NCBI GenBank assembly: GCA_021740175.1
Contig: JAIPAH010000015.1
Coordinates: 1 to 35,534, forward strand
Origin: Bacteroidales bacterium
GTDB lineage: Bacteria > Bacteroidota > Bacteroidia > Bacteroidales > JAIPAH01
DNA: 35,534 bases
Direction of reading: 5' to 3'
The translations under genes were made by a program, and so were the position numbers. Of this stretch, positions 1,416-29,796 are shown piece by piece. Numbering within the stretch: position 1 is the first letter of the stretch; the number at the start of each line of letters is the position of its first letter. The notes under the pieces are model-generated. The model ran no database searches, was not told the DNA's origin, and worked only from the letters and a program-made list of their open reading frames with translations.

Positions 1416-3776
1416 TTAATAAACCATCACTTTCTTCAGTTTTGATTGCGAATCATCCTGATAGGTTATCCTGACATAATAAATCCCGGCTTCAAGGTTA
1501 TTTAAGTCCACTTGCTGTTTTTCTCCATTAAAGGGGACCTGTTTGACTCTTGAACCGATACTGTTGAATAACTGCATATTTTGCGGTGTTTTAGCACTAT
1601 TAACTTCCACTGTAAACATTGTCCTTGCCGGATTGGGGAAAACGGTAATGTCACCTGATGCAGTAGCCGCATTCAATGTATTCCCGGTAGCCGTTTGTGA
1701 AAGAACTTTCACTTCAACATCATCAAAATAAAAGCCATCTTCTGTAACGCCCTGGTCACTAACTAAAATGAAACGAATAAGAATTTCCTCTCCTATAAAT
1801 TCATTCAGGTTGATTTCTTCTAAAACCCAATCATCCTGCACCCCGTCATAAAGAGGCTCACCTTCTTCCTGGCTGGAAGTGCCGGTTGAAGTGTATTGTC
1901 CGCTAAGAGGGGTCCAACTTTCTCCATCATCGGCCGACACCTGGACCTGGACATAATCATACCCGGATTCGATTTCCCATCGTGCTCTAAAGCTAAATTG
2001 TGCATAAATCACTTCAGACAAATCAATCGTTTCATCCAATGTTATGGAAGAAAATGTATAATTATCATAGTTGCCATCAGGCGAATCCGTTATGCTATAG
2101 GGTTCTGAAAAGTATGACTCATCGGTGATATCCCAATCTTCCGTATCCCATCCTGAAATCGTATTGCAGCTGTCGGAGATTATAATAACGGGCTCTCCAT
2201 AAAACTTGGTTAATGTATCACTTTCTTCATAATCTCCATTGTCAATGGTTAATGCATATTTGATGCTATCGCCGCTAACTATATTATCAGCGAGCGTATA
2301 GGAGATCGAATCGGAAATAGTCTCCATCAACTCCAGGTTGGAATATTCCTTAGGATCTCCGACTGAAGCAATATTATCATTCAACGGTTCCACTGATACG
2401 GTATATGTATCGCCTTCTTCAAGTCCCAATCTCCTGACATCAAAATGAAAATAACCGGTCTCTTCTTCAATAATGGTTGGCGTTTTATCATAGGCTGTAG
2501 CATAATTGCCGGTAAATTTAGTAGCCAGAATATTCATCAACAAGTTTTCCTGGCATTGCGGGATGATCTGATCCGATGCCGGCCAGAAACCTTCATCATC
2601 TCCTCCCACTTCCGGGGTAAAAGACATGATTTTATTCTTGGTTTCCTGTTCGCCATACATCCAGTCATCCGAAGCACCGTTGGTAGGATAAATGGTGGTG
2701 CTTCCCGGGCCATAAGTATAGTTATTTACCTGGGTCATTTTTTCTGAATAGGCAGCCAGTAATTCATCATCTTCGCATGGTTCTTCAGTATATCCCCATG
2801 TATATAGCAACAGGTCGCTATAGGTATGGTAATTTATTGCAAATCCGAATTCATGGTTCTCACAAAACTGCTTGACGATCTGAGTTTCGGGTTCGGAGAA
2901 GGCAGAGTCACCGCGGTAAGTTTGATCCCATGGATTCGGCGAGGAACCATTGTCATCGTAGCCCCACATATACCCGTAATTTCGGTTAAGATCAACACCC
3001 ACGGCGGCACTCCCATCGATCTCGCGGCGGTTTTTTCGCCACATACCACCGCCATCCGGATTATTTTCTTCATTATAAATATACCCATCGGGATTCACGC
3101 ATGGGGCAAAGTAAATTTCCGTATTATCTACGATATTCTGAATTTCAGGATCATTTTCATAATTCTCCAGCAAATGATACATATAAAAAACCAAAACCAT
3201 CATACCACCCGGTTCGCGGGCATGATGCAATCCCGTAAAAAATATTTCCGGCTCTTCTTCCGATTCACCGGGATTATCTGAAATTTTGGTATAATAAAGC
3301 GGTCTCCCCTCTATCGAAGTTCCCCCCGGCATTGTATCCCTTTCAGTAATCAAATCGGGATAATCGGTAGCCATAGTATCCAGCTCGGCCAGCATCTCAT
3401 CATATGTCAAAAAACCACCCATTGAGCCGAGATTAAAACCATCGGGAACAGGCACATCCATCTCCCGGGCTTTCTGTTGGATTTGGGCTCTTGTCACCTG
3501 CTTACTTCGTTCTGCATAAAACTCACTGACATCATCAATGAGCAATTCATAATCAATTCCGGCCTCTTCAAGCTTTTGGAGGTTACGCTGATTAAATTCA
3601 CCGATGAATGTGGATTTATCAGCCATATAACCTGCATCCATTGGTAAGCCCAATTTGGCCATATTTTCCATTGTATTTTCCTGGATCGGAACTTCCACCC
3701 GTGAATAAGTTCCGGGCTGGGCTTGCATTATCACTGCAGCAGCCACCGCTATAAGAGTAAGTAAATATTTTCGCAT
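1416..3776 (-). CDS. Secreted M14 zinc carboxypeptidase with T9SS sorting domain
   Basis: This 786-residue protein should cleave C-terminal residues from peptides outside the cell. Residues 1-19 form a signal peptide with likely cleavage MQA|QPGT, leaving N-terminal Gln. The M14 domain (about 120-425) keeps the zinc ligands H185 and E188 in HAREP, substrate-binding N264-R265 in DLNRN, the third ligand H317 in YHTYS and the catalytic glutamate E389 in FTPEVGG. A jelly-roll or MAM-like domain of the kind attached to secreted proteases follows at about 545-700. A T9SS type A sorting domain (712-786) starts VFPNPA and ends in KKVMVY. The gene starts 69 bp downstream of gldD on the same strand and could be read from the same transcript. 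Substrate preference (A/B type, or gamma-D-Glu peptides) cannot be told from sequence. Confidence 0.9.
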   Translation of the reverse strand: MRKYLLTLIAVAAAVIMQAQPGTYSRVEVPIQENTMENMAKLGLPMDAGYMADKSTFIGEFNQRNLQKLEEAGIDYELLIDDVSEFYAERSKQVTRAQIQQKAREMDVPVPDGFNLGSMGGFLTYDEMLAELDTMATDYPDLITERDTMPGGTSIEGRPLYYTKISDNPGESEEEPEIFFTGLHHAREPGGMMVLVFYMYHLLENYENDPEIQNIVDNTEIYFAPCVNPDGYIYNEENNPDGGGMWRKNRREIDGSAAVGVDLNRNYGYMWGYDDNGSSPNPWDQTYRGDSAFSEPETQIVKQFCENHEFGFAINYHTYSDLLLYTWGYTEEPCEDDELLAAYSEKMTQVNNYTYGPGSTTIYPTNGASDDWMYGEQETKNKIMSFTPEVGGDDEGFWPASDQIIPQCQENLLMNILATKFTGNYATAYDKTPTIIEEETGYFHFDVRRLGLEEGDTYTVSVEPLNDNIASVGDPKEYSNLELMETISDSISYTLADNIVSGDSIKYALTIDNGDYEESDTLTKFYGEPVIIISDSCNTISGWDTEDWDITDESYFSEPYSITDSPDGNYDNYTFSSITLDETIDLSEVIYAQFSFRARWEIESGYDYVQVQVSADDGESWTPLSGQYTSTGTSSQEEGEPLYDGVQDDWVLEEINLNEFIGEEILIRFILVSDQGVTEDGFYFDDVEVKVLSQTATGNTLNAATASGDITVFPNPARTMFTVEVNSAKTPQNMQLFNSIGSRVKQVPFNGEKQQVDLNNLEAGIYYVRITYQDDSQSKLKKVMVY

Positions 3777-14816: not shown

Positions 14817-16853
14817 TTAAAACTTTTGAACTTTCCTGACCCAGGTTTCTTTACCGGACTGTACCTTAATAAGATAGATACCATCGGGAACTTCCTGTCC
14901 TGATTGATTGGTCCCGTTCCAGTTTATATATTTTCTGCCTTGAGTTTCATTTTCATTCCATTCCCGTATTTCCTGTCCCCGGATACTAATTATATCAATC
15001 GTGAATGCTTTTTCCCCGGAAATATCAATAATCATTTTCAGATTCTCATTAAATGGGTTAGGTATAAACTTGATTTTATCCTCCGCCGTTTTCGTAATAT
15101 TCGTATTGATTGTTACATCAAACGTCACAGGAATAACAACTTGCTCATTAAACGGATCATTGGAGTTGATAACCAAATCAGCCGTGTAATTCCCCGGAGC
15201 CATACCGCTAGCATCCATTGTAACATCCATTACCGCTGAATCGCCGGGAGGTATGATTCCTGAGCCGGAAGTAACCGAAAGCCACCCGTCCTCATCATCA
15301 TAATTCACTACGGTGTTATAGCTTAAATCTTCCGATCCGTTGTTGTAGATAATCATCTGATCTTCGGCAGTTTCATCCTGTTGACACGCTCCGCTCAATT
15401 GTTCAACATTCGTTTCAATTTCGGCTACTGAACCGGCCTCCTGGAACTCATGCGGGTCGGGAGCGCCAATGTAAGGATGATTCTCACTTCGCCCTGACTC
15501 ATCTGCTGCATGAATATAGTAAGCCACCTCAGTGGTGGGATTAGGTACTGGGATAGCAGCCTCGTATGTGTCGCCACCGGTATTTTCCATAAGCGTTGAA
15601 GAATAATTCTCTTCATCCTCCAACTTGTAATATACCTTGAGAGAGTCTGCATACAATTCTTCCCCGCTAAAAGGAATGATTTCGGCCTCAATGACCTGCT
15701 CTTCGGCGTCTTCAACTTCCCCTAACAGGGGATTATGTTTAATCTTCAGCACATTCCTGTCAGCCATCTCATGTGTACGACAATGAAGGGCATCCGTATC
15801 TTCCCAATTATATCCCTGGTCTTCTATACCTATAATTTCATAACCGGGCATAGCTTCTTCATAGGTTTCAATAGCCTCATCATCCCATTCACTTCCTGTA
15901 AGCGGAACAAAAACACGGTCATTTAAAATCAGGGAGTTGGTATACGGTGTAGCCGGTGAGCCTCCCGGGGTAAAGATGCGATGAACCTCATAATTCGTCC
16001 CCCAGGCTGAGGTAGCATTTTCATAATAATCGGCCACAGCTTCAAAATCTTCGTAACGCGGATCATCTTCCGGGACTTCGCCGATCAATATTTTATTTGT
16101 GGATAAAAATTTTGCCCAGCAGTCGATATGCTCAATATACTCTCCAAGCGGATCTTCATTGAGATGATAGGTCTCAACTCCCATATAATCGTTCATTAAT
16201 CCGTTAATTTCATCAACGGTATATTCCGGGTTTTCTTCGATCACCAGGGTTGTTGAAGAAGCCGAATTCACACCATCAGCCATATAGTTGCCGCCCGTAT
16301 GGACAAGGTCCATTCCAAAAAGCTCTACATCCAGAGAGTCGGCCACAACAATAGGGATATCATTATCATTGGGCCGTGGCCTGTTATAAGGGAAATTCAC
16401 GATTCCAATCTGATTATCATCCCCATGCTCTATATAGAATGGTCCGTAATCTCTTGTCCAGTATGAATCGGTTGGCGCATAAATAAACGTCACGCTATCG
16501 GTATTCACTCCATTGTTTTCATACTGAGTCATCACATAATCTTCCTCACCTTCGTCTTCAACAATGGTGGTGACCAATATTTCTTCCGACATGGTGGCGA
16601 TCAAATCCATCGGAATACCAAAAGGATATCGTATTAAAACCGATTCCATAGGTTCAAATTCCGCAATAGGGCGAACTTCTCCTTCCGGTGGCTCGGTTTC
16701 AAAGAAATCCCGGCCAATCTCATCGGCCCTTTCCTTTTCTTCCTCAGTCATATGATGAGGAAGACTTTCCTGTTGCCGGTCATTTTGGGCATAAATAGGA
16801 ATGAATAAAATGACCAAAAATCCGGTTAAAACAACGCGTAAAAACTTATCCAT
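14817..16853 (-). CDS. Secreted peptidylarginine-deiminase-like (PPAD-type) enzyme with T9SS sorting domain
   Basis: This 678-residue protein belongs to the guanidine-modifying PAD_porph/agmatine deiminase family, which turns arginine-type guanidino groups into ureido groups. A signal peptide ends at about residue 22 (IYA|QNDR). The catalytic domain (about 55-375) holds W132 and D135 (YWTRDYGPF), R158 and R160 (YNRPRPND), H242 and D244 (EHIDCW), N306 (PYTNS) and the nucleophile C358 (ALHCRTHE). These match, as I recall, PPAD W127/D130, R152/R154, H236/D238, N297 and C351. A short linker domain and a BACON-like domain (about 490-590, WLSVTSGSG) follow. A T9SS sorting domain (595-678, FIPNPF to VRKVQKF) ends the protein. 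The signal peptide and sorting domain argue against cytoplasmic agmatine deiminase. Protein substrate is inferred. Confidence 0.85.
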   Translation of the reverse strand: MDKFLRVVLTGFLVILFIPIYAQNDRQQESLPHHMTEEEKERADEIGRDFFETEPPEGEVRPIAEFEPMESVLIRYPFGIPMDLIATMSEEILVTTIVEDEGEEDYVMTQYENNGVNTDSVTFIYAPTDSYWTRDYGPFYIEHGDDNQIGIVNFPYNRPRPNDNDIPIVVADSLDVELFGMDLVHTGGNYMADGVNSASSTTLVIEENPEYTVDEINGLMNDYMGVETYHLNEDPLGEYIEHIDCWAKFLSTNKILIGEVPEDDPRYEDFEAVADYYENATSAWGTNYEVHRIFTPGGSPATPYTNSLILNDRVFVPLTGSEWDDEAIETYEEAMPGYEIIGIEDQGYNWEDTDALHCRTHEMADRNVLKIKHNPLLGEVEDAEEQVIEAEIIPFSGEELYADSLKVYYKLEDEENYSSTLMENTGGDTYEAAIPVPNPTTEVAYYIHAADESGRSENHPYIGAPDPHEFQEAGSVAEIETNVEQLSGACQQDETAEDQMIIYNNGSEDLSYNTVVNYDDEDGWLSVTSGSGIIPPGDSAVMDVTMDASGMAPGNYTADLVINSNDPFNEQVVIPVTFDVTINTNITKTAEDKIKFIPNPFNENLKMIIDISGEKAFTIDIISIRGQEIREWNENETQGRKYINWNGTNQSGQEVPDGIYLIKVQSGKETWVRKVQKF

Positions 16854-17334: not shown

Positions 17335-19350
17335 TTACCGCTGCAAAATAAGCTTTCTCGTATGGACTTGATCGTTCATAACGACTCTTACAAAATATAT
17401 TCCCGGACTCACGCTTTCGCCACCCCGGCTATTGGCTCTCCAAATCCATTCTTCATCTCCCGAGAGCTTTCCATCAAAGAGGGTTTTAATAAGGCTTCCG
17501 GTCATATTGTGTAAAGTAACCCGTCCTTTAATATTAGCCTTTGAATTCAACTTTATTCGAGTAAAATTCTTAAATGGGTTCGGGGCTACTTTTAAAGTGA
17601 CATCTGAAGAGCCATCCGGATCGTTCACTTCGGTGGTCATTCCCACATCCACGGTTATCGTAGCGGTTACCGTATCTTCATCATGTAAATCACGGACAAA
17701 ATAAGCTTCTCCTGTAAGAGTACCATCTTCCAGGCTGTCGCCTTCAATGTAAAAATCAACAGTGTCAGATTCTGAACCGAAAAGGGTACTTTGATCAAAA
17801 TCGGTAGACAACCACCCGGCACTGTCAGAAGCAACCACATGATAATTCATGGCACCGGCGCCGGTATTGGAAACCGACAATTGCACGGTATCGTTCTGCA
17901 TAAGAGGTAGTGATAACTCCACGGTATCTTCCGATAATGTCATCTGAGGGCCTATGGGAACCGTATCCATAGCCATCAGGGAATTATTAAGATTCAGGCG
18001 CCCGCCTGATACGGTAGTACCTTCCAGGGAGGATAAGGGATCGACATTGTAAAGGATATACTCCTTAATCATATAAGCAATAGAATCGGGATTCTCCTTA
18101 TATGCTTCCATCATCGAACTATCGGCATGAGAGAACAAAAGAGCAATTGCTCCGGTCACATGTGGTGTAGCCATTGAAGTGCCGGTTTTATAGCCATAAT
18201 CATCGCCCGGTGTCGTGGAATAGATAGAAGTTCCGGGAGCACCCAGGTCAATGGTAGTCCGGCCATACCCCGCACTGGAACTTTTCACGTCATCATCGGT
18301 GGTATTGGTTACACTAATGAGGTAATCGCTTTCCATAGCTGTAGGGACATCTCCTACCTCATCAATATTAAGCTCGATATTGGTAGTGGCACCGGTGCTA
18401 AGCACACCTACGTAACCCAAAGAATCGTACATGGATCCCCAAATCGGGTAATCATCAGGGTCGCCATAATTCACTCCGAAAGAAGCATTGGTAGCGACCA
18501 CATAAGCTCCCGTATCGCCGTCCGTTTCATTGTAGAGGGCTCTCATATCGTGCACATAGCTATAACCTTCCACCACGGTACTTTCAATACTTGACGAAGC
18601 TGCCACCGGCATTAGCTGAGCATGCCAATTCACGCCGGTTACACCGATATCATTCCCCCCTTTGGCAGAGACGGTACCACCTACGTGCGTTCCGTGACTA
18701 CTGCCGGGAATACTCCCATCGCTGGAGTAAGCGTCCCAACCATGGACATCGTCCACATAACCGTTTCCGTCATCATCTTCTCCATTATCCGGAATCTCAT
18801 TATAATTCGTCCACAAATTATCCTCCAGGTCTTCGTGGTTCAGGGACATCCCCCCATCCACAATGGCAACAACTATTGTATCGCCCAAAGAAGTGAAACC
18901 ACCCTGAGTCATCGACCATGCTTCGGGCCCGTCTACATCGGCATCTTCTACGCCTCCTGTTTGGCCAGTGTTATGGAGCCCCCATAAATCATCGAAATAA
19001 GTATCGTTCGGAATGGTATCATTTGTATCCCTAAGCTCCAATTTGTGATTAAATTGGGCCAGTTTCACAGCTGGGTGGGCTCTTAAATCTTCTAAAAGTT
19101 TCTCGCCATTTTTTGATGTATTATAGGTGCTTAGCCAGATTTTCATCCGATTTGATAATTTTTTGTAGTCCGCATCGAAATCATAATCGGCAAAATCATT
19201 TTCCAAAGTTGTTATAGCCCCTTCCGGGTTATACTTATTGATATCGACCTGGATCATCATTTGCCCGGGTATACGGTTATCCTGTGAAAAGGCATTAAAC
19301 CCGGCTACCACAATCATCAGGGTAAGAAAATATTGTATGAATTGTTTCAT
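17335..19350 (-). CDS. Secreted subtilisin-like serine protease (S8) with T9SS sorting domain
   Basis: This 671-residue protein is an extracellular endopeptidase. The signal peptide ends near residue 22 (AFS|QDNR). A propeptide-like region runs to about 115. The S8 domain (about 120-460) has the catalytic triad D165 (AIVDGG), H219 (SHGTHVGG) and S392 (GTSMATPHV), with the oxyanion N288 in ATNASFG. A BACON-like beta domain (about 470-575, AGWLSTDF) and a T9SS sorting domain (587-671, VAPNPF to RKLILQR) complete it. The calcium-site-like DDDGNGYVDD loop near 192-201 is common in Bacteroidota subtilases. It has its own terminator, so it appears to be a single-gene unit. Confidence 0.94.
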   Translation of the reverse strand: MKQFIQYFLTLMIVVAGFNAFSQDNRIPGQMMIQVDINKYNPEGAITTLENDFADYDFDADYKKLSNRMKIWLSTYNTSKNGEKLLEDLRAHPAVKLAQFNHKLELRDTNDTIPNDTYFDDLWGLHNTGQTGGVEDADVDGPEAWSMTQGGFTSLGDTIVVAIVDGGMSLNHEDLEDNLWTNYNEIPDNGEDDDGNGYVDDVHGWDAYSSDGSIPGSSHGTHVGGTVSAKGGNDIGVTGVNWHAQLMPVAASSSIESTVVEGYSYVHDMRALYNETDGDTGAYVVATNASFGVNYGDPDDYPIWGSMYDSLGYVGVLSTGATTNIELNIDEVGDVPTAMESDYLISVTNTTDDDVKSSSAGYGRTTIDLGAPGTSIYSTTPGDDYGYKTGTSMATPHVTGAIALLFSHADSSMMEAYKENPDSIAYMIKEYILYNVDPLSSLEGTTVSGGRLNLNNSLMAMDTVPIGPQMTLSEDTVELSLPLMQNDTVQLSVSNTGAGAMNYHVVASDSAGWLSTDFDQSTLFGSESDTVDFYIEGDSLEDGTLTGEAYFVRDLHDEDTVTATITVDVGMTTEVNDPDGSSDVTLKVAPNPFKNFTRIKLNSKANIKGRVTLHNMTGSLIKTLFDGKLSGDEEWIWRANSRGGESVSPGIYFVRVVMNDQVHTRKLILQR

Positions 19351-21128: not shown

Positions 21129-24100
21129 TTACTGTATAACAAGCCGCTTAACTGTACGATTATTATTTGTCTCTATAATCAAAAGATAAATTCCTTTGCC
21201 ATTATTACTCAAATCAAAGCGCACTCTTGTTTTGCTGATATTAATATCTTCTTTATGAAGAACCAGATTGGACAATGCATCCATAACTTTCACATTAACG
21301 GACTCCTCAAATCCTTCATCAGCGGAAAGATAAAACACTCCTTCAGTCGGATTCGGATAAATACTGACACCTTCGCCATTTATATCATCTCCAAACCCTA
21401 TGGTATTCCTCACTTTGACCTGCTGCGCTTCGGAATAAGGGCTATCGCCACAATCGTTTACTGCCGTAACCTTTATTTCTGCATCCCCTGTCCATTGGTC
21501 ACTCCATGACACTGTCACAGCGGTATCGTCAGCTAGCAGGGTGCCAGCTTCTTCGGGATCCAGTGTCCACTCGTGGGTATTGGCATACATTGGCGGTAAA
21601 GTAGTATAAACACTCATTGAGTCATATACCAGGTCGACGGTGTCTGTACCGGAAGGTTTTTGCGGTGTTTGGGGTAAAGGACTCATGACAATATTGTAAG
21701 AGCCTTCCCCTGAATTGGCACATCCATTGGCATCAACAACAGTTCCCAATGTATACGCTGTCGTATCATCAACAATGAAAGAGTGCGTCCACTCATCTTC
21801 CGTTACATCCGTATATTCCTGGTCGTTAAGCTCCAATGTCCAGGGAGCTTCCCCGGTCAATTGGACTGTTAAGGTCGCTTCCTGTCCTTCACAAATTTCT
21901 TCTTCCCCTGAGGATAATGTTGCTGTAGGCAGGGAATTTATTGTGAGATTGACATCGATGGAAGTATCAGCACAAGTACCCATACCCATTACATTAAGGG
22001 ATAAGTTGGCCGAGCCGCTGTTGATTTCTTCTTCTCCGGGATAATATACCGGGGCAACCACTGTGCTATCCGAAAAGCTTCCGTTTCCTTGGGTTGTCCA
22101 TAGTAAATCTGAAAAATGGGCAGCTTCAATATTCTCCATGACCAAGGAATCCCCGGCACAAATCGTGGAAGATTGTGGAGCCGACACTTCAGGTTTTTCA
22201 GGTAAGTAAACAACCATTGCATCGGTTTCTTGATCACCTTCCTCACCATTTACGGTTAAAGTCAAAATCACCTGGCCATTCTCAAAATCTTCCTGGCTAG
22301 GAGTATATTCGGGATGCATCGTAACATGACTGTCAAAAGTACCTGAACCCGATGTCTCCCATTCTACGGAATTATAGTAAGTGGCTGCGGCCCCATCAAT
22401 TTCCACAGTATTCATCTGACAACCATGAATATCCTGGCCGGCATAAACCATAGTCATCACTTCAGGAGGCAATACAATATTATCTACCCATGCACAGTCT
22501 TCTCCATTGCTTTGGTAACCATCTTTTTCATACTTCCAGGTAAACGTATGTTCTCCGGCAGAAACAGGGAACTCTACTTTGGCCCAATCCTGCTCACCGG
22601 ACCAGCTTCCCATGACTTCTCCATCAATAAGGAAATAAAGATAATCGTAACCACTTTCAGAGGACACCTTCCTGTAAAAAGAAATTGTATCATCAAACAT
22701 CACTTCATAAGAGATTTTCAATTGTGAATTTTCTGAATTGCTGATTGTTCCAGATTGAGAGGAGTAAACCCCTTCATAAACCGGATCTTCAGTAATGAAC
22801 CAATCGGCATCACCTTCATTTTCCCAATCGAACTGGGAGAAATCACCACTTTCAAAATCCTCCATTATCAAACCTACTTTGAAGCTAAACGGTTGCTCGT
22901 CGCCGTATGGAGGAAACGCCACCAGGTTTTCAATATCTATAAAAGAACCGATAAATGCCCCGGAATCCACCGATATACTGAATTGAGCGGTTTTGGTACT
23001 ATCGGATTGCAAATTCTCAATAGTGTACTCTCCTTCATCGATATAACAGGTAGCAGAAGTAGTAGTGATGGAAGATAAAACATCTTCGGCTTTGCAATGT
23101 CCATCATTTTTTACCTGGATAAACAAGTCGGCTGATTCGCCGGGATCGATTATATCATTCCCGTTACCCTCAGTTTCCACCACCTGCATATTTTTAATTT
23201 CAAGCACAGGTGAATAAATTTTCATATTAAACCCACTCACCCACTCTTCTTCGTTGGAGGTGGCAATCACATCATAAGCAACATTGTGATTATCAGGGAT
23301 ACTGTCGTCCACCTGCACTGTAAATCCGTTTTCAACCGTGGCTGTGGATTCGGGCGGGATATCACCGTAATTCTCCGAATCATCCGTAATTGTAACGTAG
23401 GGGTCATCACTTTCCAGGGTTACCATCACATCTTCAGCAGGGTCATTACCAAAATTTTCCACGGTCAGGGTGATCATCAGCTCTTCGCCATAATCAGCCT
23501 CACTATTGTTATTGCCCTGCTCATCATTGATTTCGAAATCCTCATTAATTACATAAGGTCCGTCGGGCGGTATAACCTCTATCTGCTCATGATAACGGTA
23601 AAAATTTTGTTTAGTTATGACAATATCCACGACCGTTCCCGGCTCCTGGGGCTCAATAGGAATATCTACCGGTGCCCCGGTTCCTTCTGCGGTACCGAGA
23701 ATTTCCCCGTCCACTGAAAGAGCAATCAGGGAACCTTCGTTGGCCGTCACCTCAAAACTATCGGGCCCGCTGAGCAACACGTCATTATGCACTACATCCA
23801 GTTCCTGGGGCATTTCGGAATAAACAGTTGAAAAGGTGCCGCCATGGTGGTGGAAAAGGTGATATGTAACCTCTTTATCGCCCGTATTATACGGCCAATC
23901 AGATTGCTGAAGGTGATATTTTCCGCCAGCATTCCCAAAAGCAGGTTTAACATCTCTCGAATCGGGTGTTGTTCCGTAGTCAGGCATAAAGTCCGGCCAC
24001 ATGTTATCATACATACCCCATACATAGGTATCATTAACAAACGAATAGGACGTTTCGGAGGCCGCAATAACTCCTAAAGCTCCTGATGGTTCACCGTTAT

Positions 24101-25709
24101 GGGTATGCCTGTGGAATTTCTCAGCGAAGCACTCTCCACTCATATTATATTTCCCCGTCAGGCAGTTGATAGACATTACAAATGTAAGATCGGTATTCGT
24201 CAGCTCTTCGATATCGCCCATGTCATAATCGGGTTCTCCCCATCCTGTTTCAGAGCCATGGTCGCGATGCTGTAACATGAAAGCCCCGCTGTTGATGCCT
24301 TCATTTACACCCTCAGCACTTCCATCGAAAGGAGGAAGATAATCGGGAGTTTCTTCTATATACCCTTGTCCATCAGGTCCAAAATAATCGACAACAGTTT
24401 CCGTATTTGTAGCCGTAGACCAAACATCAGTGTTTCCGCTGTAAATCACATTCTCACGGCGGGGATCTTTGCCCTGTTCATTTTTCCAGAACCCATGAAT
24501 GCTCTCGGAGCATATCTGGAACCAACGCTCTGTTTGCCATCCCAGGGCAGTTATCGGGTTGTCATAATAATCTTCATTGGTCGGAGGGTCCTTTTCATGA
24601 TCGATAAATTTAGATACCATCACTTCAAGCTGTTCGGCATTTTGGGCTGTGATACGGCCAAAGACCATATCCGGCAGATGATTACCGGTGACATCTGCAT
24701 AAATATTATCGGAAGCGCAATAGCCGTCATAGATTGGTGAGATGACCCGGTTCTCCATGTCATCACCGTAATCTCCAAGTAAAAGAACGGCTGATGGGGG
24801 TGTATCCCATGTGTTATAGGCTTCATCAAAATAGCTTTCCAAAACGTCGGGATCATTCGCTCCAATTTCCGAGAGTGTTACTACTTTGGTGTGGATTCCC
24901 TGCATATTGCGGAATCTTTTAATAGAATCAGCCCACTGTTGAAATTCTTCGCCATCCGGGGAAACGATGAGGTATTCACATCCTTCTTCGCGCGAATTTC
25001 CTGAAAACTTCCGCGTATAATCTTTCTCCGGAATTACCGTCTTATTGAGAACCGCATCCTTGATAAGCGGATCAAACCAGCGGCTACGGTATTTTGCCTC
25101 ACCAAACTGATTACTTCCACCGGTGTATGTAACTTCTACCTTTATATCCCTGTAAACGATTAATTTTTCAGAAACAGGATTATATTGAAAAGGGGTTATA
25201 CCCAGCATCACGACATCAAACCCCCTGATTTCATCTTTTTCCGATAGTTTGATGGGTTCAGCAGGATAAAAAGCATCTTTATTGTATATCTTTTCATCTT
25301 TGTTGTATTCAAGGGGACCTACTTCATTTTCTTTCGGGATTCGTGGAGCCGGAGCAATCTTAACATTCTCGATAACCTCTTTTCGTTTGTCGGTGATGTT
25401 CAGTTCTACCTCCGCATTCTCCGGGACTGCAATGTATCTCCCTTTTCCCGGAAGGTTAGGTGCTCCTTCGTCATTTGGCAGGTAATGACCGGGAAGCTGG
25501 ATGTCTTTCATTGCATCTCCGTTTATTGTTATTTCCTCAAGAGCAAATTTTTCAATCGAAAAATTTACTACAGTCTTGTCATCTCTTTGCTGCTCAACAG
25601 AATAACCGGGAGCACCTCTGGCATCATCGTATGTATAAGTCTGCGAGAAGAGCAACGGTCCGGTAAAGAGCAAAAGAGTAATGAGTCCATTAGTAATTAA
25701 TTTTTTCAT
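21129..25709 (-). CDS. Gingipain-like C25 cysteine protease, multidomain, T9SS sorted
   Basis: This 1526-residue secreted protease has a signal peptide (LFS|QTYT, about residue 22) and a C25 propeptide-like region (to about 235). The C25 catalytic domain (about 243-600) has His H484 in RDHGSETGW and Cys C516 in SINCLTGK, 32 residues apart as in gingipain R (H211/C244 from memory). LLGDYGDD (310-317) lines up with the gingipain segment that holds the S1 Asp, so basic-residue cleavage is possible. Beyond lie an Ig-like domain (about 640-710), two CARDB-like beta domains (about 718-945), a MAM-like domain (about 949-1082) and PKD/SprB-like modules (about 1088-1400). A T9SS sorting domain (1448-1526, VSIYPNPTEG to RLVIQ) ends it. 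Residues 718-1110 are paralogous to the neighbouring propeller protein. Flanking terminators suggest a single-gene unit. Confidence 0.92.
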   Translation of the reverse strand: MKKLITNGLITLLLFTGPLLFSQTYTYDDARGAPGYSVEQQRDDKTVVNFSIEKFALEEITINGDAMKDIQLPGHYLPNDEGAPNLPGKGRYIAVPENAEVELNITDKRKEVIENVKIAPAPRIPKENEVGPLEYNKDEKIYNKDAFYPAEPIKLSEKDEIRGFDVVMLGITPFQYNPVSEKLIVYRDIKVEVTYTGGSNQFGEAKYRSRWFDPLIKDAVLNKTVIPEKDYTRKFSGNSREEGCEYLIVSPDGEEFQQWADSIKRFRNMQGIHTKVVTLSEIGANDPDVLESYFDEAYNTWDTPPSAVLLLGDYGDDMENRVISPIYDGYCASDNIYADVTGNHLPDMVFGRITAQNAEQLEVMVSKFIDHEKDPPTNEDYYDNPITALGWQTERWFQICSESIHGFWKNEQGKDPRRENVIYSGNTDVWSTATNTETVVDYFGPDGQGYIEETPDYLPPFDGSAEGVNEGINSGAFMLQHRDHGSETGWGEPDYDMGDIEELTNTDLTFVMSINCLTGKYNMSGECFAEKFHRHTHNGEPSGALGVIAASETSYSFVNDTYVWGMYDNMWPDFMPDYGTTPDSRDVKPAFGNAGGKYHLQQSDWPYNTGDKEVTYHLFHHHGGTFSTVYSEMPQELDVVHNDVLLSGPDSFEVTANEGSLIALSVDGEILGTAEGTGAPVDIPIEPQEPGTVVDIVITKQNFYRYHEQIEVIPPDGPYVINEDFEINDEQGNNNSEADYGEELMITLTVENFGNDPAEDVMVTLESDDPYVTITDDSENYGDIPPESTATVENGFTVQVDDSIPDNHNVAYDVIATSNEEEWVSGFNMKIYSPVLEIKNMQVVETEGNGNDIIDPGESADLFIQVKNDGHCKAEDVLSSITTTSATCYIDEGEYTIENLQSDSTKTAQFSISVDSGAFIGSFIDIENLVAFPPYGDEQPFSFKVGLIMEDFESGDFSQFDWENEGDADWFITEDPVYEGVYSSQSGTISNSENSQLKISYEVMFDDTISFYRKVSSESGYDYLYFLIDGEVMGSWSGEQDWAKVEFPVSAGEHTFTWKYEKDGYQSNGEDCAWVDNIVLPPEVMTMVYAGQDIHGCQMNTVEIDGAAATYYNSVEWETSGSGTFDSHVTMHPEYTPSQEDFENGQVILTLTVNGEEGDQETDAMVVYLPEKPEVSAPQSSTICAGDSLVMENIEAAHFSDLLWTTQGNGSFSDSTVVAPVYYPGEEEINSGSANLSLNVMGMGTCADTSIDVNLTINSLPTATLSSGEEEICEGQEATLTVQLTGEAPWTLELNDQEYTDVTEDEWTHSFIVDDTTAYTLGTVVDANGCANSGEGSYNIVMSPLPQTPQKPSGTDTVDLVYDSMSVYTTLPPMYANTHEWTLDPEEAGTLLADDTAVTVSWSDQWTGDAEIKVTAVNDCGDSPYSEAQQVKVRNTIGFGDDINGEGVSIYPNPTEGVFYLSADEGFEESVNVKVMDALSNLVLHKEDINISKTRVRFDLSNNGKGIYLLIIETNNNRTVKRLVIQ

Positions 25710-25875: not shown

Positions 25876-28800
25876 TTAGCGGCTTATAACAATCTTCTGG
25901 GTAAATAATTCACCGCTTGTTATCACTTTAAGGAAGTAGACGCCGTCAGCTAAATGATTCAGGTCCATTTCCTTTTTATATTCTCTATTTACAGATATCT
26001 CTTTCAGGCTATAAACTTGTTTACCATCCTGATTTACGATTTGTATCGTTGCCTTTTGGGGCGAATCAACCTGCATGATAAAGTTGAATGAACCATCATT
26101 CGGGTTGGGATAAACTTCCACACTTGCAGCTTCTTCCTGTTCAGGAATACCAGTGCAATCCTCGAACGTTATATCCACACTTTTCTCTTGCTGACAATTA
26201 TTTTCCCCGGTTACAAGAGCCGTATAAGTAATGGTTCCCATTCCCACACCGGTTGAATCAATCGTAATTTCAGATGTAGTAACATCACCGGGTGTCCATT
26301 GATACGATGCCGCATTCTCTGCTGACACATCAAAAGTTATTTCGTGATTATGGCAGATAGCAGTATCGGCTACAAGATCAAATTCCGGTAAAGGTTTAAC
26401 ATTCATCATCATACTATCGGTATCATAGGAAGTACATCCATTGGCATCGGTAACCGATAAAATGCTGACCATTGTTGATTGCTCAGCGATGACCTCATGA
26501 ACAAAAGTATCCTCATCGGATGTGATTGTATCATTATTTGATAAAGCCACAGTATAGGGCGCTTCACCGGAGAGTTCCAATTCCACTGTAGCTGTATCAC
26601 CTGAACAGACTTCCATGCTATCGCTGGCAAAAGATGATTCAGGCATAGGCTCAATCTGATAGGTCACCATAGATGTATCATTCTCGCAATCGGCCATACC
26701 ATAACCAACGACTTTAAGGGTAACATAGCCACTGTCAATATCAGCCGCACCCGGATGATAAGTCGTTTGCATCATGGAAGAGTCGCTAAACATTCCGTCG
26801 CCTTCAGTCATCCATTCCACGCTACTTACATTTTCACCTGAAGCTTCATCAAGCATAATGCTATCTACAGCACAAACAGCTGCGTCACTACCTGCTTCAA
26901 CCTCAGGAGATTCAAAGAAATCAACGGTTATCTCACTGGTTTCCGTTTCGGTAGGACCAACCACCGTGAGGGTGAGTGTTACACTTCCCTCATTATAATC
27001 TTCCTGGCTTGGATTATAAACAGTAACTAATGTGTCGGCATTTTCGAAAGCTCCTGAACCGTTAGTTGACCATTCCACGCTATTGTACAAGGTAGCTTCT
27101 CCTGCCAGCGGTACCGAATTCCCGATACATGTTTCAATAGCTGTTCCCGCAAAGGCTGTAGTTGTCATTGCCGGCGGGAATTCTATAAAATCTATCCAAC
27201 CACAATCTTCTCCACCAGATTGTGTAAAATCTTTTTCATAAGCCCATGTGAATGTATGTTCTCCTTGCATAACGGGATAAGAGACTTTCTCCCAATCCTG
27301 CTCTCCGGAATATTGATCGATAAGTTCCCCGTCAATATAAAACTTGAGATAATCATAACCGCTTTCCGAAGAAACCTTCCTGTAGAAGGAAATGGAATCA
27401 TTATTCATCACTCCGTAGTCAATTGAAAGCTCACTCTCCTCGTTATCCTCTATATCAGCTGATTTTGCAGCATAAGCACCTTCATACACTACATCACTAA
27501 CTATAACCCAGGGGTTTAAGGAATCGTTTTGCCAATCGAAATTGGTAAAATCTCCTGATTCCCAATCTTCAACTATAATACCTATATTCACAAAGAAATC
27601 TTTTTGCGCAGAATGATATTCGGAACTCACTTCAAAAGCCATCTCAACAGCCGTTCCTTCCTCGGCTTCTTCCGATACCTCAACATTAAATTCGGCCGTG
27701 TCGGATTCACTGGCTTCCAAATCTCCGAGATTATCTACGGTGCTTAAGACCGTGATTTCATCGCTTAGAGCCTCTATAGTACCGATAACCTGGTTGGCAG
27801 TAAAATCTCCGGGATTAGAAACTGCGACTTTTACCGTTCCTTCTTCTCCGGGGTCCAGGAAACCATTCATATCCCCGCTGGTTTCAACAACCGATTTACT
27901 TCCTATGGCAAGGGCAGGAGCATGCGCTTCCGAGGTAAAGCTGCTGGTGAAAGTACTATCATTGGCATCAACAGATGTAAGAGTGAATTCCACAGATTCA
28001 CCGTCGGGTATGGTCGGATCAGCAGTTACTTCAAAAGCATTCTCCACAGTAATGGTATCCTCCACCTCAAAATCACCAAAATTCTCGTAATCATCTTCAA
28101 GGGTTACATACGAAGACTCAGTCGACAAGGTTACCCCCACATCGTTGGCAGGCTCATCACCAATATTACTCAAAGTCACTGTAAAATACCCGGTTTCATC
28201 GTAATCGAACTCTCCGTTATCATTTCCCTGGGGATCATTATATTGGTGATCATCATAAATAACCCAGGGTTGATTGGGTGGTGGCCCTGATAAAAACGGT
28301 GATACATAAGACATTGTCGTTCCTGTACGATTATCGGTCCAAATCGGGTAAGTCCATCCGCTATAGGAGTCAATACCAAGATAGTCTCCCATATAGCCTG
28401 AGGCCAGTCCCGGAATCGGCGAAGGTGTAAAAGATACATCGCTTACGCGAAAATCTTCCCATGATTCTCCTGCATCATTAGATGTAGCCACAAACACTTC
28501 TGCTTGCGAACTGGAAACGTCACGGTCATCATAAAAAATAACATTTAATGCGCCGGTAACAGGATCACAGGAAATCCAGGGGAAATATTGTTCATTTTCC
28601 TCTTCGGGATCATCCTGGTTGACTCTGATGGGGTCGGACCAGGTATCACCATCGTCCGTTGATTTAATCATGTAAATGTCAATACCGGGCCCTTCGTTAG
28701 TTCCCGGTTCCCCAATGTTGGCCCATGTGACGTAGATCGTTCCGCGGTTAGGGCCACTGCTGATATCCACATCCATAACCGGGAAGGAGTTGACGCGCAT

Positions 28801-29796
28801 GTCTTTAGAGGTTTCGCTATCACGAATACCCCTGATATCTTCAATAATGCGGAAGGTTTCCCAGGTTTCACCTCCGTCATAAGAACGGGCCATAGCAAGT
28901 GCATTCTCATCGTTTGGCCAGCTATCATAAATTGCCCAAACGGCAAAAACCTCACCATCCGGTCCGGTACCTATATTAACGCCCTGGTTATGGCTTCCGG
29001 CATTAACCTCAGAACTTATCTCCTGGGGCTCTGACCAATTAAGACCGCCGTCCTCCGAATAGTTAATTTCAATTTCGTTATCATTGTCTCCGCCAAAATT
29101 GGTCCAGGCAGAATAAACATTGCCTTCATTCGGGCTTGTGGGGCTATTATCCACCCAAAGGTGATTTTTGTCGAGCAAGGAGCCAAAGCCTCCGGGAGCC
29201 TCCCCTACAAGGACAGATGTCCAACTATCGCCATTATCTTCCGAATAGGCTACACCCTGTCCTCCTGTAGAATGGATAAATCCGTTATACATCCGGCCAT
29301 CCAGGTCAATAGCAGCCGCCGGGTCGCCATCATTCTCACCGCCGGTACCTTCAAGGTTACCATACCATGTCTCGCCACCGTCGTCGGTTTTGAGATCATT
29401 CGCTCCATATACACTACCTCCCGGTGTTGTAGAATTATTCGAGTTAAGCGCATGATCGCTGTCATTAGGATCCACAAAAACACTGTTTTCACTTTGTGTG
29501 GATTCTTCCTCAGTCACGGGTACATCCTCCGAATCATCCGTTATTGCACGGGAAGAATGAATTTTCGTGGATTGACGTTCAGGTTCCGGCACTTTCGTCC
29601 TTGGCTGAACCGGAACAAGGCCTTCTGCGGCCATTCGTTTCCAGTATCCCATATTATCAATACGGGTATCCGGTGTGTATTTCTCCGGCATGGGTTCATC
29701 CGGATTATACATTGCTTCGTTTTCTTCTTGTGCGTATCCTGCAAAAGACATTATAAGGATACCACACGATAAAAAGAGTAATTTTAGTTTATTCAT
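25876..29796 (-). CDS. Sialidase-like Asp-box (BNR) propeller protein, multidomain, T9SS sorted
   Basis: This 1306-residue secreted protein has a signal peptide ending GYA|QEEN (about residue 22). The head (about 130-505) is a beta propeller with five Asp boxes of S/T-x-D-x-G-x-x-W form: 185-192, 247-254, 305-312, 379-386 and 439-446. Such propellers occur in sialidases, other glycosidases and non-enzymatic binding proteins. I did not find a clear arginine triad or nucleophile Tyr, so enzyme activity is unproven. The tail repeats the neighbour's plan: two CARDB-like domains (about 509-735), a MAM-like domain (742-875), PKD/SprB-like modules (about 880-1215) and a T9SS sorting domain (1227-1306, VEVYPNPNDG to KIVISR). 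It lies upstream of the C25 gene on the same strand but is separated from it by a terminator. Confidence 0.88.
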   Translation of the reverse strand: MNKLKLLFLSCGILIMSFAGYAQEENEAMYNPDEPMPEKYTPDTRIDNMGYWKRMAAEGLVPVQPRTKVPEPERQSTKIHSSRAITDDSEDVPVTEEESTQSENSVFVDPNDSDHALNSNNSTTPGGSVYGANDLKTDDGGETWYGNLEGTGGENDGDPAAAIDLDGRMYNGFIHSTGGQGVAYSEDNGDSWTSVLVGEAPGGFGSLLDKNHLWVDNSPTSPNEGNVYSAWTNFGGDNDNEIEINYSEDGGLNWSEPQEISSEVNAGSHNQGVNIGTGPDGEVFAVWAIYDSWPNDENALAMARSYDGGETWETFRIIEDIRGIRDSETSKDMRVNSFPVMDVDISSGPNRGTIYVTWANIGEPGTNEGPGIDIYMIKSTDDGDTWSDPIRVNQDDPEEENEQYFPWISCDPVTGALNVIFYDDRDVSSSQAEVFVATSNDAGESWEDFRVSDVSFTPSPIPGLASGYMGDYLGIDSYSGWTYPIWTDNRTGTTMSYVSPFLSGPPPNQPWVIYDDHQYNDPQGNDNGEFDYDETGYFTVTLSNIGDEPANDVGVTLSTESSYVTLEDDYENFGDFEVEDTITVENAFEVTADPTIPDGESVEFTLTSVDANDSTFTSSFTSEAHAPALAIGSKSVVETSGDMNGFLDPGEEGTVKVAVSNPGDFTANQVIGTIEALSDEITVLSTVDNLGDLEASESDTAEFNVEVSEEAEEGTAVEMAFEVSSEYHSAQKDFFVNIGIIVEDWESGDFTNFDWQNDSLNPWVIVSDVVYEGAYAAKSADIEDNEESELSIDYGVMNNDSISFYRKVSSESGYDYLKFYIDGELIDQYSGEQDWEKVSYPVMQGEHTFTWAYEKDFTQSGGEDCGWIDFIEFPPAMTTTAFAGTAIETCIGNSVPLAGEATLYNSVEWSTNGSGAFENADTLVTVYNPSQEDYNEGSVTLTLTVVGPTETETSEITVDFFESPEVEAGSDAAVCAVDSIMLDEASGENVSSVEWMTEGDGMFSDSSMMQTTYHPGAADIDSGYVTLKVVGYGMADCENDTSMVTYQIEPMPESSFASDSMEVCSGDTATVELELSGEAPYTVALSNNDTITSDEDTFVHEVIAEQSTMVSILSVTDANGCTSYDTDSMMMNVKPLPEFDLVADTAICHNHEITFDVSAENAASYQWTPGDVTTSEITIDSTGVGMGTITYTALVTGENNCQQEKSVDITFEDCTGIPEQEEAASVEVYPNPNDGSFNFIMQVDSPQKATIQIVNQDGKQVYSLKEISVNREYKKEMDLNHLADGVYFLKVITSGELFTQKIVISR

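What the first reader, a model, noticed from the sequence alone, without database searches (positions are those of the whole stretch)
14817..16853. Secreted deiminase keeps all the PPAD residues I can recall, including the C-terminal-arginine clamp
The catalytic domain retains W132/D135, H242/D244, N306 and C358, plus the pair R158/R160. By my recollection of Porphyromonas PPAD (R152/R154) that pair binds the carboxylate of a C-terminal arginine. It also has a signal peptide, a BACON-like domain and a T9SS sorting domain. Together these predict an exported protein-citrullinating enzyme outside the genus where PPAD is best known.
Basis: partly seen in the sequence, partly recalled or inferred. 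Interest (0 to 1): 0.58.

Follow-up and report, generated by a model that had tools for sequence, protein, structure and literature searches.

The report
PPAD-type deiminase outside Porphyromonas
An uncultured bacterium carries a secreted enzyme built like the Porphyromonas gingivalis enzyme that turns arginines at protein ends into citrulline, and in its relatives this enzyme almost always comes with the kind of protease that makes such ends, so the pair looks older and wider than the gum pathogen.

Summary
Confirmed and extended. The ORF at 14817-16853 (minus strand, 678 aa) is a PPAD-family enzyme, not an agmatine deiminase: 407 bits to PPAD (PDB 4YT9) against 73 to the best agmatine deiminase, 46% identity, model TM-score 0.95 to PPAD. 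It has PPAD's own Ig domain, one extra Ig domain (not BACON by Pfam's cut-off) and a T9SS sorting domain. It is no oddity: P. gingivalis PPAD is a twig inside a large clade of mostly uncultured Bacteroidota, Cloacimonadota and others, and 76 of 247 genomes of the window's order have one. New here: 73 of those 76 also carry an RgpB-type Arg-gingipain, against 37 of 171 without PPAD, and in several genomes the two genes are neighbours. The window's genome has RgpB-type and Kgp-type genes. Most likely a secreted protease cuts after arginine and this enzyme deiminates the exposed C-terminal arginine. Activity is inferred, not shown.

The parts
14817..16853 (-). PPAD-type peptidylarginine deiminase gene, 678 aa, T9SS cargo
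16788..16853 (-). signal-peptide-like segment, residues 1-22
   Evidence: sequence inspection; no predictor run
15753..16691 (-). PPAD catalytic (pentein) domain, about residues 55-367; the Pfam PAD_porph match itself is residues 83-362
   Evidence: outer limits set by eye against PPAD
16449..16460 (-). W132 and D135 (PPAD W127, D130)
16374..16382 (-). R158 and R160, carboxylate clamp (PPAD R152, R154)
   Evidence: function from PMC4487231 and PMC4893104 passages
16119..16139 (-). Michaelis-loop motif Y239-I-E-H242-I-D244-C245 (PPAD Y233, H236, D238, C239): gate tyrosine, general base, guanidine-binding Asp
15936..15938 (-). N306 (PPAD N297)
15780..15782 (-). catalytic C358 (PPAD C351)
15441..15752 (-).
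   Evidence: inner limit set by eye
15132..15392 (-). extra HYDIN/VesB/CFA65-like Ig domain, residues 488-574, outside the PPAD match
14829..15062 (-). T9SS type A sorting domain, residues 598-675
21129..25709 (-). gingipain-family C25 peptidase (propeptide, C25, C25_C Ig, T9SS tail); this type is linked to PPAD-type genes in other genomes too, but its S1 pocket is not clearly RgpB-like
17335..19350 (-). S8 subtilase with BACON_2 domain (T9SS tail just under cut-off), next gene upstream of the deiminase, same strand
1416..3776 (-). M14 zinc carboxypeptidase with T9SS tail; could compete for C-terminal residues (speculative)
   Evidence: used as control

Best explanation
The gene encodes an exported PPAD-family exo-deiminase. 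SHOWN by sequence and model: PPAD fold and domain order, complete catalytic set, complete C-terminal-arginine site (R158, R160, Y239), T9SS sorting domain, and T9SS markers (PorU, SprA_N) in the same genome. INFERRED: it crosses the outer membrane, and outside the cell the Michaelis loop closes over a C-terminal arginine, R158/R160/Y239 hold its carboxylate, D135/D244 hold the guanidine, C358 attacks it with H242 as base, and the products are peptidyl-citrulline and ammonia. INFERRED from co-occurrence and gene neighbourhood: its substrates are ends made by a secreted RgpB-type Arg-gingipain (in this genome encoded elsewhere, contigs C117/C29), so the two act in series in extracellular protein breakdown. 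The confidence given is for the enzyme's identity and exo-specificity; for the protease partnership as a direct functional link I would say about 0.65.
For: 407.5 bits, E 1.1e-120 to PPAD 4YT9 over residues 50-471; best agmatine-deiminase-like chain 1XKN 72.6 bits. 10 of 10 active-site and clamp positions identical to PPAD. Model (mean pLDDT 82.9) vs PPAD: TM 0.94-0.95 by target length, rmsd 1.7-2.2 A, 45% identity; best agmatine deiminase TM 0.79. Tree clade of 46 rows with PPAD at 98/95, outgroup split 100/100. NCBIfam agmatine deiminase models far below cut-off (56.1 vs 483; 51.9 vs 381.8). T9SS: PorU model over cut-off three times, SprA_N E 1e-176. Partner: RgpB-type C25 in 73 of 76 PPAD+ vs 37 of 171 PPAD- genomes; adjacent gene pairs; own RgpB-type gene keeps D163, W284, M288.
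Against: No activity data. PPAD also acts on free L-arginine (PMC4893104 passage), so peptide substrates are not certain in vivo. In this window the nearest C25 gene is not of the RgpB type by its S1 pocket, and the RgpB-type gene is on other contigs. Residues 348-354, next to the catalytic cysteine, are poorly modelled (pLDDT under 50). Of possible secretome controls only M14 was run, and it is associated with PPAD too, though less.
Confidence: 0.85

Rival explanations
1. It is an exported agmatine deiminase, or a general pentein enzyme, that only resembles PPAD.
For: Same Pfam family PAD_porph, which also covers agmatine deiminases: the AgDI-like row L041 scores 430.6 bits against 110.4 for the window.
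Against: AgDI-like rows lack the arginine pair and the tyrosine (Ala, Tyr/Phe and Thr there), lie far outside the PPAD clade, and the curated agmatine deiminase models are missed by a wide margin.
Confidence: 0.04
2. It is PPAD-like in fold and site but serves mainly as an extracellular free-arginine deiminase for nitrogen or ammonia, not as a peptide-modifying enzyme.
For: PMC4893104 (passage) states that PPAD can citrullinate free L-arginine; the clamp binds a carboxylate, which free arginine also has.
Against: PMC4487231 (passage) attributes PPAD's preference for peptides to R154 contacting the preceding carbonyl; R160 is kept. Near-constant presence of an Arg-specific protease homologue suits peptide ends better.
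Confidence: 0.1
3. The Arg-gingipain link is not functional coupling: both genes simply mark proteolytic T9SS bacteria. (This rival concerns the partnership, not the enzyme's identity.)
For: M14 carboxypeptidase is also enriched in PPAD+ genomes (36 of 76 vs 10 of 171). C25 genes lie near PPAD in only 14 of 91 loci examined. Genomes are related, so p-values are too small.
Against: The Rgp link persists among genomes without that M14 (38 of 40 vs 28 of 161), while M14 follows PPAD only weakly among Rgp+ genomes (odds 2.9, p 0.013). With one genome per family it is 10 of 10 vs 4 of 29. The three PPAD+ genomes without Rgp are only 78, 81 and 85% complete. Some pairs lie 11-61 bases (open frames) or 21 and 46 bases apart on one strand.
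Confidence: 0.3

Closest known systems
Porphyromonas gingivalis PPAD (PDB 4YT9, 4YTB, 4YTG, 5AK7)
   Same: Catalytic domain plus Ig-like domain, all catalytic and clamp residues, tyrosine gate, T9SS sorting domain; 46% identity over 414 aligned positions
   Different: Window protein has one extra Ig domain (488-574); comes from an uncultured Bacteroidales-like bacterium; activity not measured
PPAD-type genes in uncultured Bacteroidota, Cloacimonadota, Chlorobiota, Fidelibacterota genomes (L044-L123)
   Same: Same ten-residue signature in 78 of the 79 loci of this set that were aligned
   Different: Protein lengths differ widely; one relative from another search (L008) has a dockerin instead of a T9SS tail
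Agmatine deiminase (AguA; 1XKN, 2JER)
   Same: Pentein fold and catalytic residues
   Different: No clamp arginines and no gate tyrosine in the AgDI-like rows here; far outside in the tree
Human PAD4
   Same: By PMC4487231 (passages) shares catalytic residues and the two arginines
   Different: Has Ser468 at the Y233 position, which lets it take internal arginines; calcium dependent; not compared by sequence here
Gingipain R (RgpB, 1CVR), as the partner
   Same: Gene of the same genome on C29: 324 bits to RgpB vs 69 to Kgp; D163, H211, C244, W284, M288 positions kept
   Different: In this assembly not next to the deiminase gene; the window's own C25 is a different, divergent type

Membership tests
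PPAD | Catalytic Asp130, His236, Asp238, Asn297, Cys351 | tested here: met
   D135, H242, D244, N306, C358
PPAD | Arg152/Arg154 carboxylate clamp | tested here: met
   R158/R160 in the same columns
PPAD | Tyr233 gate on the Michaelis loop, which blocks internal arginines | tested here: met
   Y239
PPAD | Ig-like domain fused behind the catalytic domain | tested here: met
   PPAD match continues to residue 471; whole two-domain chain TM 0.95
PPAD | Groups with PPAD and away from agmatine deiminases | tested here: met
   46-row clade 98/95; outgroup split 100/100
PPAD | T9SS sorting domain in a T9SS-bearing genome | tested here: met
   Sorting domain over Pfam and NCBIfam cut-offs; PorU and SprA_N in the genome; export itself not tested
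PPAD | Calcium-independent deimination of C-terminal, not internal, arginine | not testable with these tools
   needs an assay
Agmatine deiminase | Curated model cut-off | tested here: not met
   56.1 vs 483 bits; 51.9 vs 381.8 bits
Agmatine deiminase | Clusters with agmatine deiminases | tested here: not met
   only two AgDI-like outgroup rows (L041, L043), themselves under the equivalog cut-off
BACON domain | Pfam BACON_2 gathering score | tested here: not met
   23.2 vs 25; HYDIN/VesB Ig 35.5 vs 25.5 instead
RgpB-type Arg-gingipain (gene of the same genome, L172/L173) | S1 pocket Asp163, Trp284, Met288 and dyad His211/Cys244 | tested here: met
   printed alignment; column table
RgpB-type Arg-gingipain (C25 gene in the window, 21129-25709) | S1 pocket Asp163, Trp284, Met288 | tested here: inconclusive
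   dyad H484/C516 kept but the Asp163 and Trp284-Met288 blocks do not align

The most novel reading that the evidence does not exclude
PPAD and an Arg-specific gingipain form an ancient, near-obligate secreted 'cut after arginine, then deiminate' module of free-living FCB-group bacteria, sometimes in one operon, and P. gingivalis citrullination, tied to rheumatoid arthritis, is a late reuse of it. A sister group of related enzymes keeps the arginine pair but lacks the gate tyrosine (Gly, Val, Gln, Glu or Pro there) and may be bacterial deiminases of internal arginines.
Probability: 0.45. Interest if true: 0.72.

Novelty: new member of a known kind. Interest (0 to 1): 0.57.

Why it matters
Several of the papers read call PPAD unique to P. 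gingivalis or the only known bacterial PAD (passages). PMC8826395 (passages) already says pPAD-type genes are more widespread than thought, in a supplementary figure I could not open. What this adds is that enzymes with the full C-terminal-arginine site are common in uncultured bacteria, that the P. gingivalis enzyme is a twig of that tree, and that the deiminase nearly always travels with an RgpB-type protease. That makes the purpose of PPAD testable outside disease, and gives a series of natural gate variants for studying exo- versus endo-specificity.

Tried and rejected
Agmatine deiminase: rejected by scores, tree and residues. BACON domain: under Pfam's cut-off. The idea that the window's own C25 gene is the Arg-specific partner: its S1 blocks do not align with RgpB, so it is not claimed; an RgpB-type gene was then found elsewhere in the genome. 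The reading that R158/R160 alone proves exo-specificity: rejected, because sister groups keep both arginines without the tyrosine. Searches of the held papers for PPAD relatives, or for PPAD with gingipain outside Porphyromonas, showed no paper on the pairing in their listings; these cover an open-licence library only, and listings were cut.

Circularity noted: the named-genome scan used the patterns YI[EKD]HIDCW and PYTNS[LF]I[LMI]N, so Y239, H242, D244, C245 and N306 are partly selected for; 72 of the 80 loci hold the first pattern. Not so selected: R158/R160, and the ten loci L004-L013 from the whole-genome search, 10 of 10 with the full signature. Of the seven aligned loci found by the second pattern alone, six have Tyr and one (L062) has Ser.

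Rows dropped: L045 (partial); L124 and L125 as duplicates; 70 of 122 aligned rows kept in the tree after identity thinning; L160 had no usable gene call in the neighbour census; downstream neighbours of PPAD loci were listed but not scanned. In the co-occurrence count the gate-less genomes are the 18 PPAD-negative ones whose listed match had 129 bits or more; four with shorter matches of 110-125 bits (G443, G450, G475, G576) were not counted, and two of those four lack Rgp by my threshold.

Full report
WHAT IS THERE. The minus-strand ORF 14817-16853 translates to 678 aa. Pfam finds PAD_porph at residues 83-362 (E 1.4e-31), a HYDIN/VesB/CFA65-like Ig domain at 488-574, and a Por_Secre_tail at 598-675 over its cut-off; BACON_2 falls below its cut-off. 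NCBIfam's agmatine deiminase models score far below their cut-offs, and the T9SS type A sorting domain passes. Against PDB sequences the best matches are all PPAD (407.5 bits, E 1.1e-120, residues 50-471); the best agmatine-deiminase-like chain, 1XKN, has 72.6 bits.

ACTIVE SITE. In an alignment with the printed 4YT9 chain, W127, D130, R152, R154, Y233, H236, D238, C239, N297 and C351 of PPAD correspond to W132, D135, R158, R160, Y239, H242, D244, C245, N306 and C358. Identity is 46% over 414 aligned positions and 49% over 276 in the catalytic part. In PMC4487231 (passages) R152, R154 and Y233 bind the carboxylate of a C-terminal arginine; the two arginines are shared with arginine deiminases and human PADs, and PAD4 has Ser at the Y233 position, which opens the site to internal arginines. 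PMC4893104 (passages) reports lower peptide activity for R152A and R154A and a preference for Gly-Arg. The gate tyrosine is therefore the more telling residue, and it is kept.

STRUCTURE. AlphaFold2 with an 11-sequence alignment gave mean pLDDT 82.9. Foldseek against PDB ranks seven PPAD chains first (TM by target 0.94-0.95, rmsd 1.7-2.2 A, 45% identity); agmatine deiminases follow at TM 0.79 or less. Residues 348-354 are poorly modelled. I did not overlay side chains.

RELATIVES AND TREE. Among 40 genomes of the 'relatives' draw, 11 (own included) have a match of 328 bits or more (42-100% identity). In an even draw of 395 genomes from the phylum only four besides the window's own reach 350 bits, all in family f61, and those have Ala at the gate position. 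In an even draw of 247 genomes from the window's order, 76 reach 328 bits. By record title they are 55 Bacteroidota, 15 Cloacimonadota, 4 Chlorobiota, 4 Fidelibacterota, 1 Eiseniibacteriota and 1 unplaced; most titles say MAG, so mis-binning is possible for single records. The nearest named record is a Bacteroidales MAG, Tobar18m-G3, 88% identical over the whole protein. Of 122 aligned rows (window and PPAD included) 90 share the full ten-residue signature. The tree of 70 rows places window and PPAD in one clade of 46 rows (98/95); P. gingivalis PPAD sits next to L011 and L104 (98/93), inside the mostly uncultured diversity; the AgDI-like outgroup is split off at 100/100. The exact place of the window row within its 32-row subclade is unresolved.

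SISTER GROUPS WITHOUT THE GATE. A second group with 30-39% identity to the window enzyme keeps both arginines but has Gly, Gln, Val, Glu or Pro instead of the tyrosine and Met at the C239 position (21 rows); family f61 has Ala and Thr (4 rows); one row inside the PPAD clade, L062, has Ser. Of two members of the second group scanned, L020 has a T9SS tail over the cut-off and L029 one just under it. Whether these enzymes act on internal arginines is open.

PROTEASE PARTNER. The window also encodes a C25 gingipain-family peptidase, an S8 subtilase, an M14 carboxypeptidase and a BNR protein with T9SS tails, the S8 tail just under its cut-off. With a C25 profile, 14 of 91 non-redundant PPAD loci (1.22 Mb of flank) have a C25 gene in the flank, 13 of the 14 on the same strand and 10 of the 14 within 400 bases; 0 of 19 control loci of the gate-less group (0.32 Mb) do (the hits in L056 and L128 are weak). 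In a Pfam census C25 is matched by 8 of 82 upstream neighbours and SLT transglycosylase by 27; neither is among the 25 families listed for the 35 control neighbours. The window's C25 type keeps the catalytic dyad, but its S1 blocks do not align with RgpB. Other linked C25 genes are RgpB-type: L114 scores 344 bits to RgpB against 42 to Kgp, L106 296 against 73, with the D163, W284 and M288 positions kept in the printed alignments. Pocket roles are from PMC9559808 and PMC4357240 (passages).

The window's genome has seven C25 matches; three genes pass the PorU cut-off. On C29 lies an RgpB-type gene (324 bits to RgpB, 69 to Kgp) and on C117 a Kgp-type gene (380 bits to Kgp, 107 to RgpB). The end of C117 holds the N-terminal part of a gingipain-type gene whose last residues equal the first 41 of C29, so the two gingipain-type genes are probably neighbours. 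SprA_N is present.

CO-OCCURRENCE. In the same 247 genomes, an RgpB-type C25 (best E <= 1e-50 to this genome's own) is found in 110; it is in 73 of 76 PPAD+ and 37 of 171 PPAD- genomes (Fisher p 1.2e-30). The three exceptions, G001, G561 and G577, are 78, 85 and 81% complete. Restricted to the 194 genomes with any C25 match it is 73 of 76 vs 37 of 118 (p 1.7e-21); with one genome per family in the relatives draw 10 of 10 vs 4 of 29 (p 1.6e-6). Of the 37 PPAD- genomes with Rgp, 18 carry the gate-less group, and all 18 gate-less genomes counted have Rgp (four shorter matches not counted, see Tried and rejected). Control: a close relative of the window's M14 (E <= 1e-50) is in 36 of 76 vs 10 of 171 (p 1.2e-13), so part of the signal is a shared proteolytic secretome; but among genomes without it the Rgp link holds (38 of 40 vs 28 of 161), and among Rgp+ genomes M14 follows PPAD only weakly (odds 2.9, p 0.013). 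The genomes share ancestry, so these p-values overstate the evidence.

GENE PAIRS. Seven stretches, chosen because PPAD and an RgpB-type hit lay within about 6 kb on one contig, were read: in five the two genes are direct neighbours on one strand, closest 21 and 46 bases apart; in two one gene lies between. All nine C25 rows compared keep the Asp163, His211, Cys244 and Met288 positions; seven keep Trp284.

CONCLUSION. The protein is a new member of the PPAD family with the full exo-deiminase site. The most likely role is deimination of C-terminal arginines left by an Arg-specific secreted protease. The wide distribution and the protease partnership are the parts a specialist would not expect from the literature that calls PPAD unique.

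Noticed in passing
G000 contigs C117 (L173:1006-4926 and 2-907) and C29 (L172:3-3671): The window's genome carries a Kgp-type and an RgpB-type gingipain gene, apparently side by side across a contig break; relatives such as G006, G020 and G026 show a second, weaker C25 match about 3-4 kb from their RgpB-type gene.
   Followed up: partly
L014, L019-L038 (and further genomes of the order): Widespread group 30-39% identical to the window enzyme with R152/R154 kept but Gly/Val/Gln/Glu/Pro at the Tyr233 gate and Met at C239: candidate deiminases of internal arginines.
   Followed up: partly
L062: Natural Ser at the gate position inside the PPAD clade, as in human PAD4 (Ser468).
   Followed up: no
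L008:1348-2943: PPAD-type enzyme ending in a type I dockerin, with no T9SS tail detected.
   Followed up: no
L001:1423-3054 (G000 C105): Second deiminase-family gene of the same genome, T9SS-tailed, with Glu and Ile at the R152 and Y233 positions; very long branch in the tree.
   Followed up: partly
upstream neighbours of PPAD loci: A transglycosylase SLT gene is the nearest upstream gene in 27 of 82 PPAD loci; reason unknown.
   Followed up: no
window 25876-29796: BNR-repeat T9SS protein; relatives 48-66% identical occur in the flanks of 11 PPAD loci.
   Followed up: no
L039, L040: Shorter deiminase-family proteins lacking both clamp arginines yet branching next to the PPAD clade; no T9SS tail found in L039 (L040 not scanned).
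   Followed up: no
G000 C237 and C100: Three genes pass the PorU sortase cut-off in one genome.
   Followed up: no
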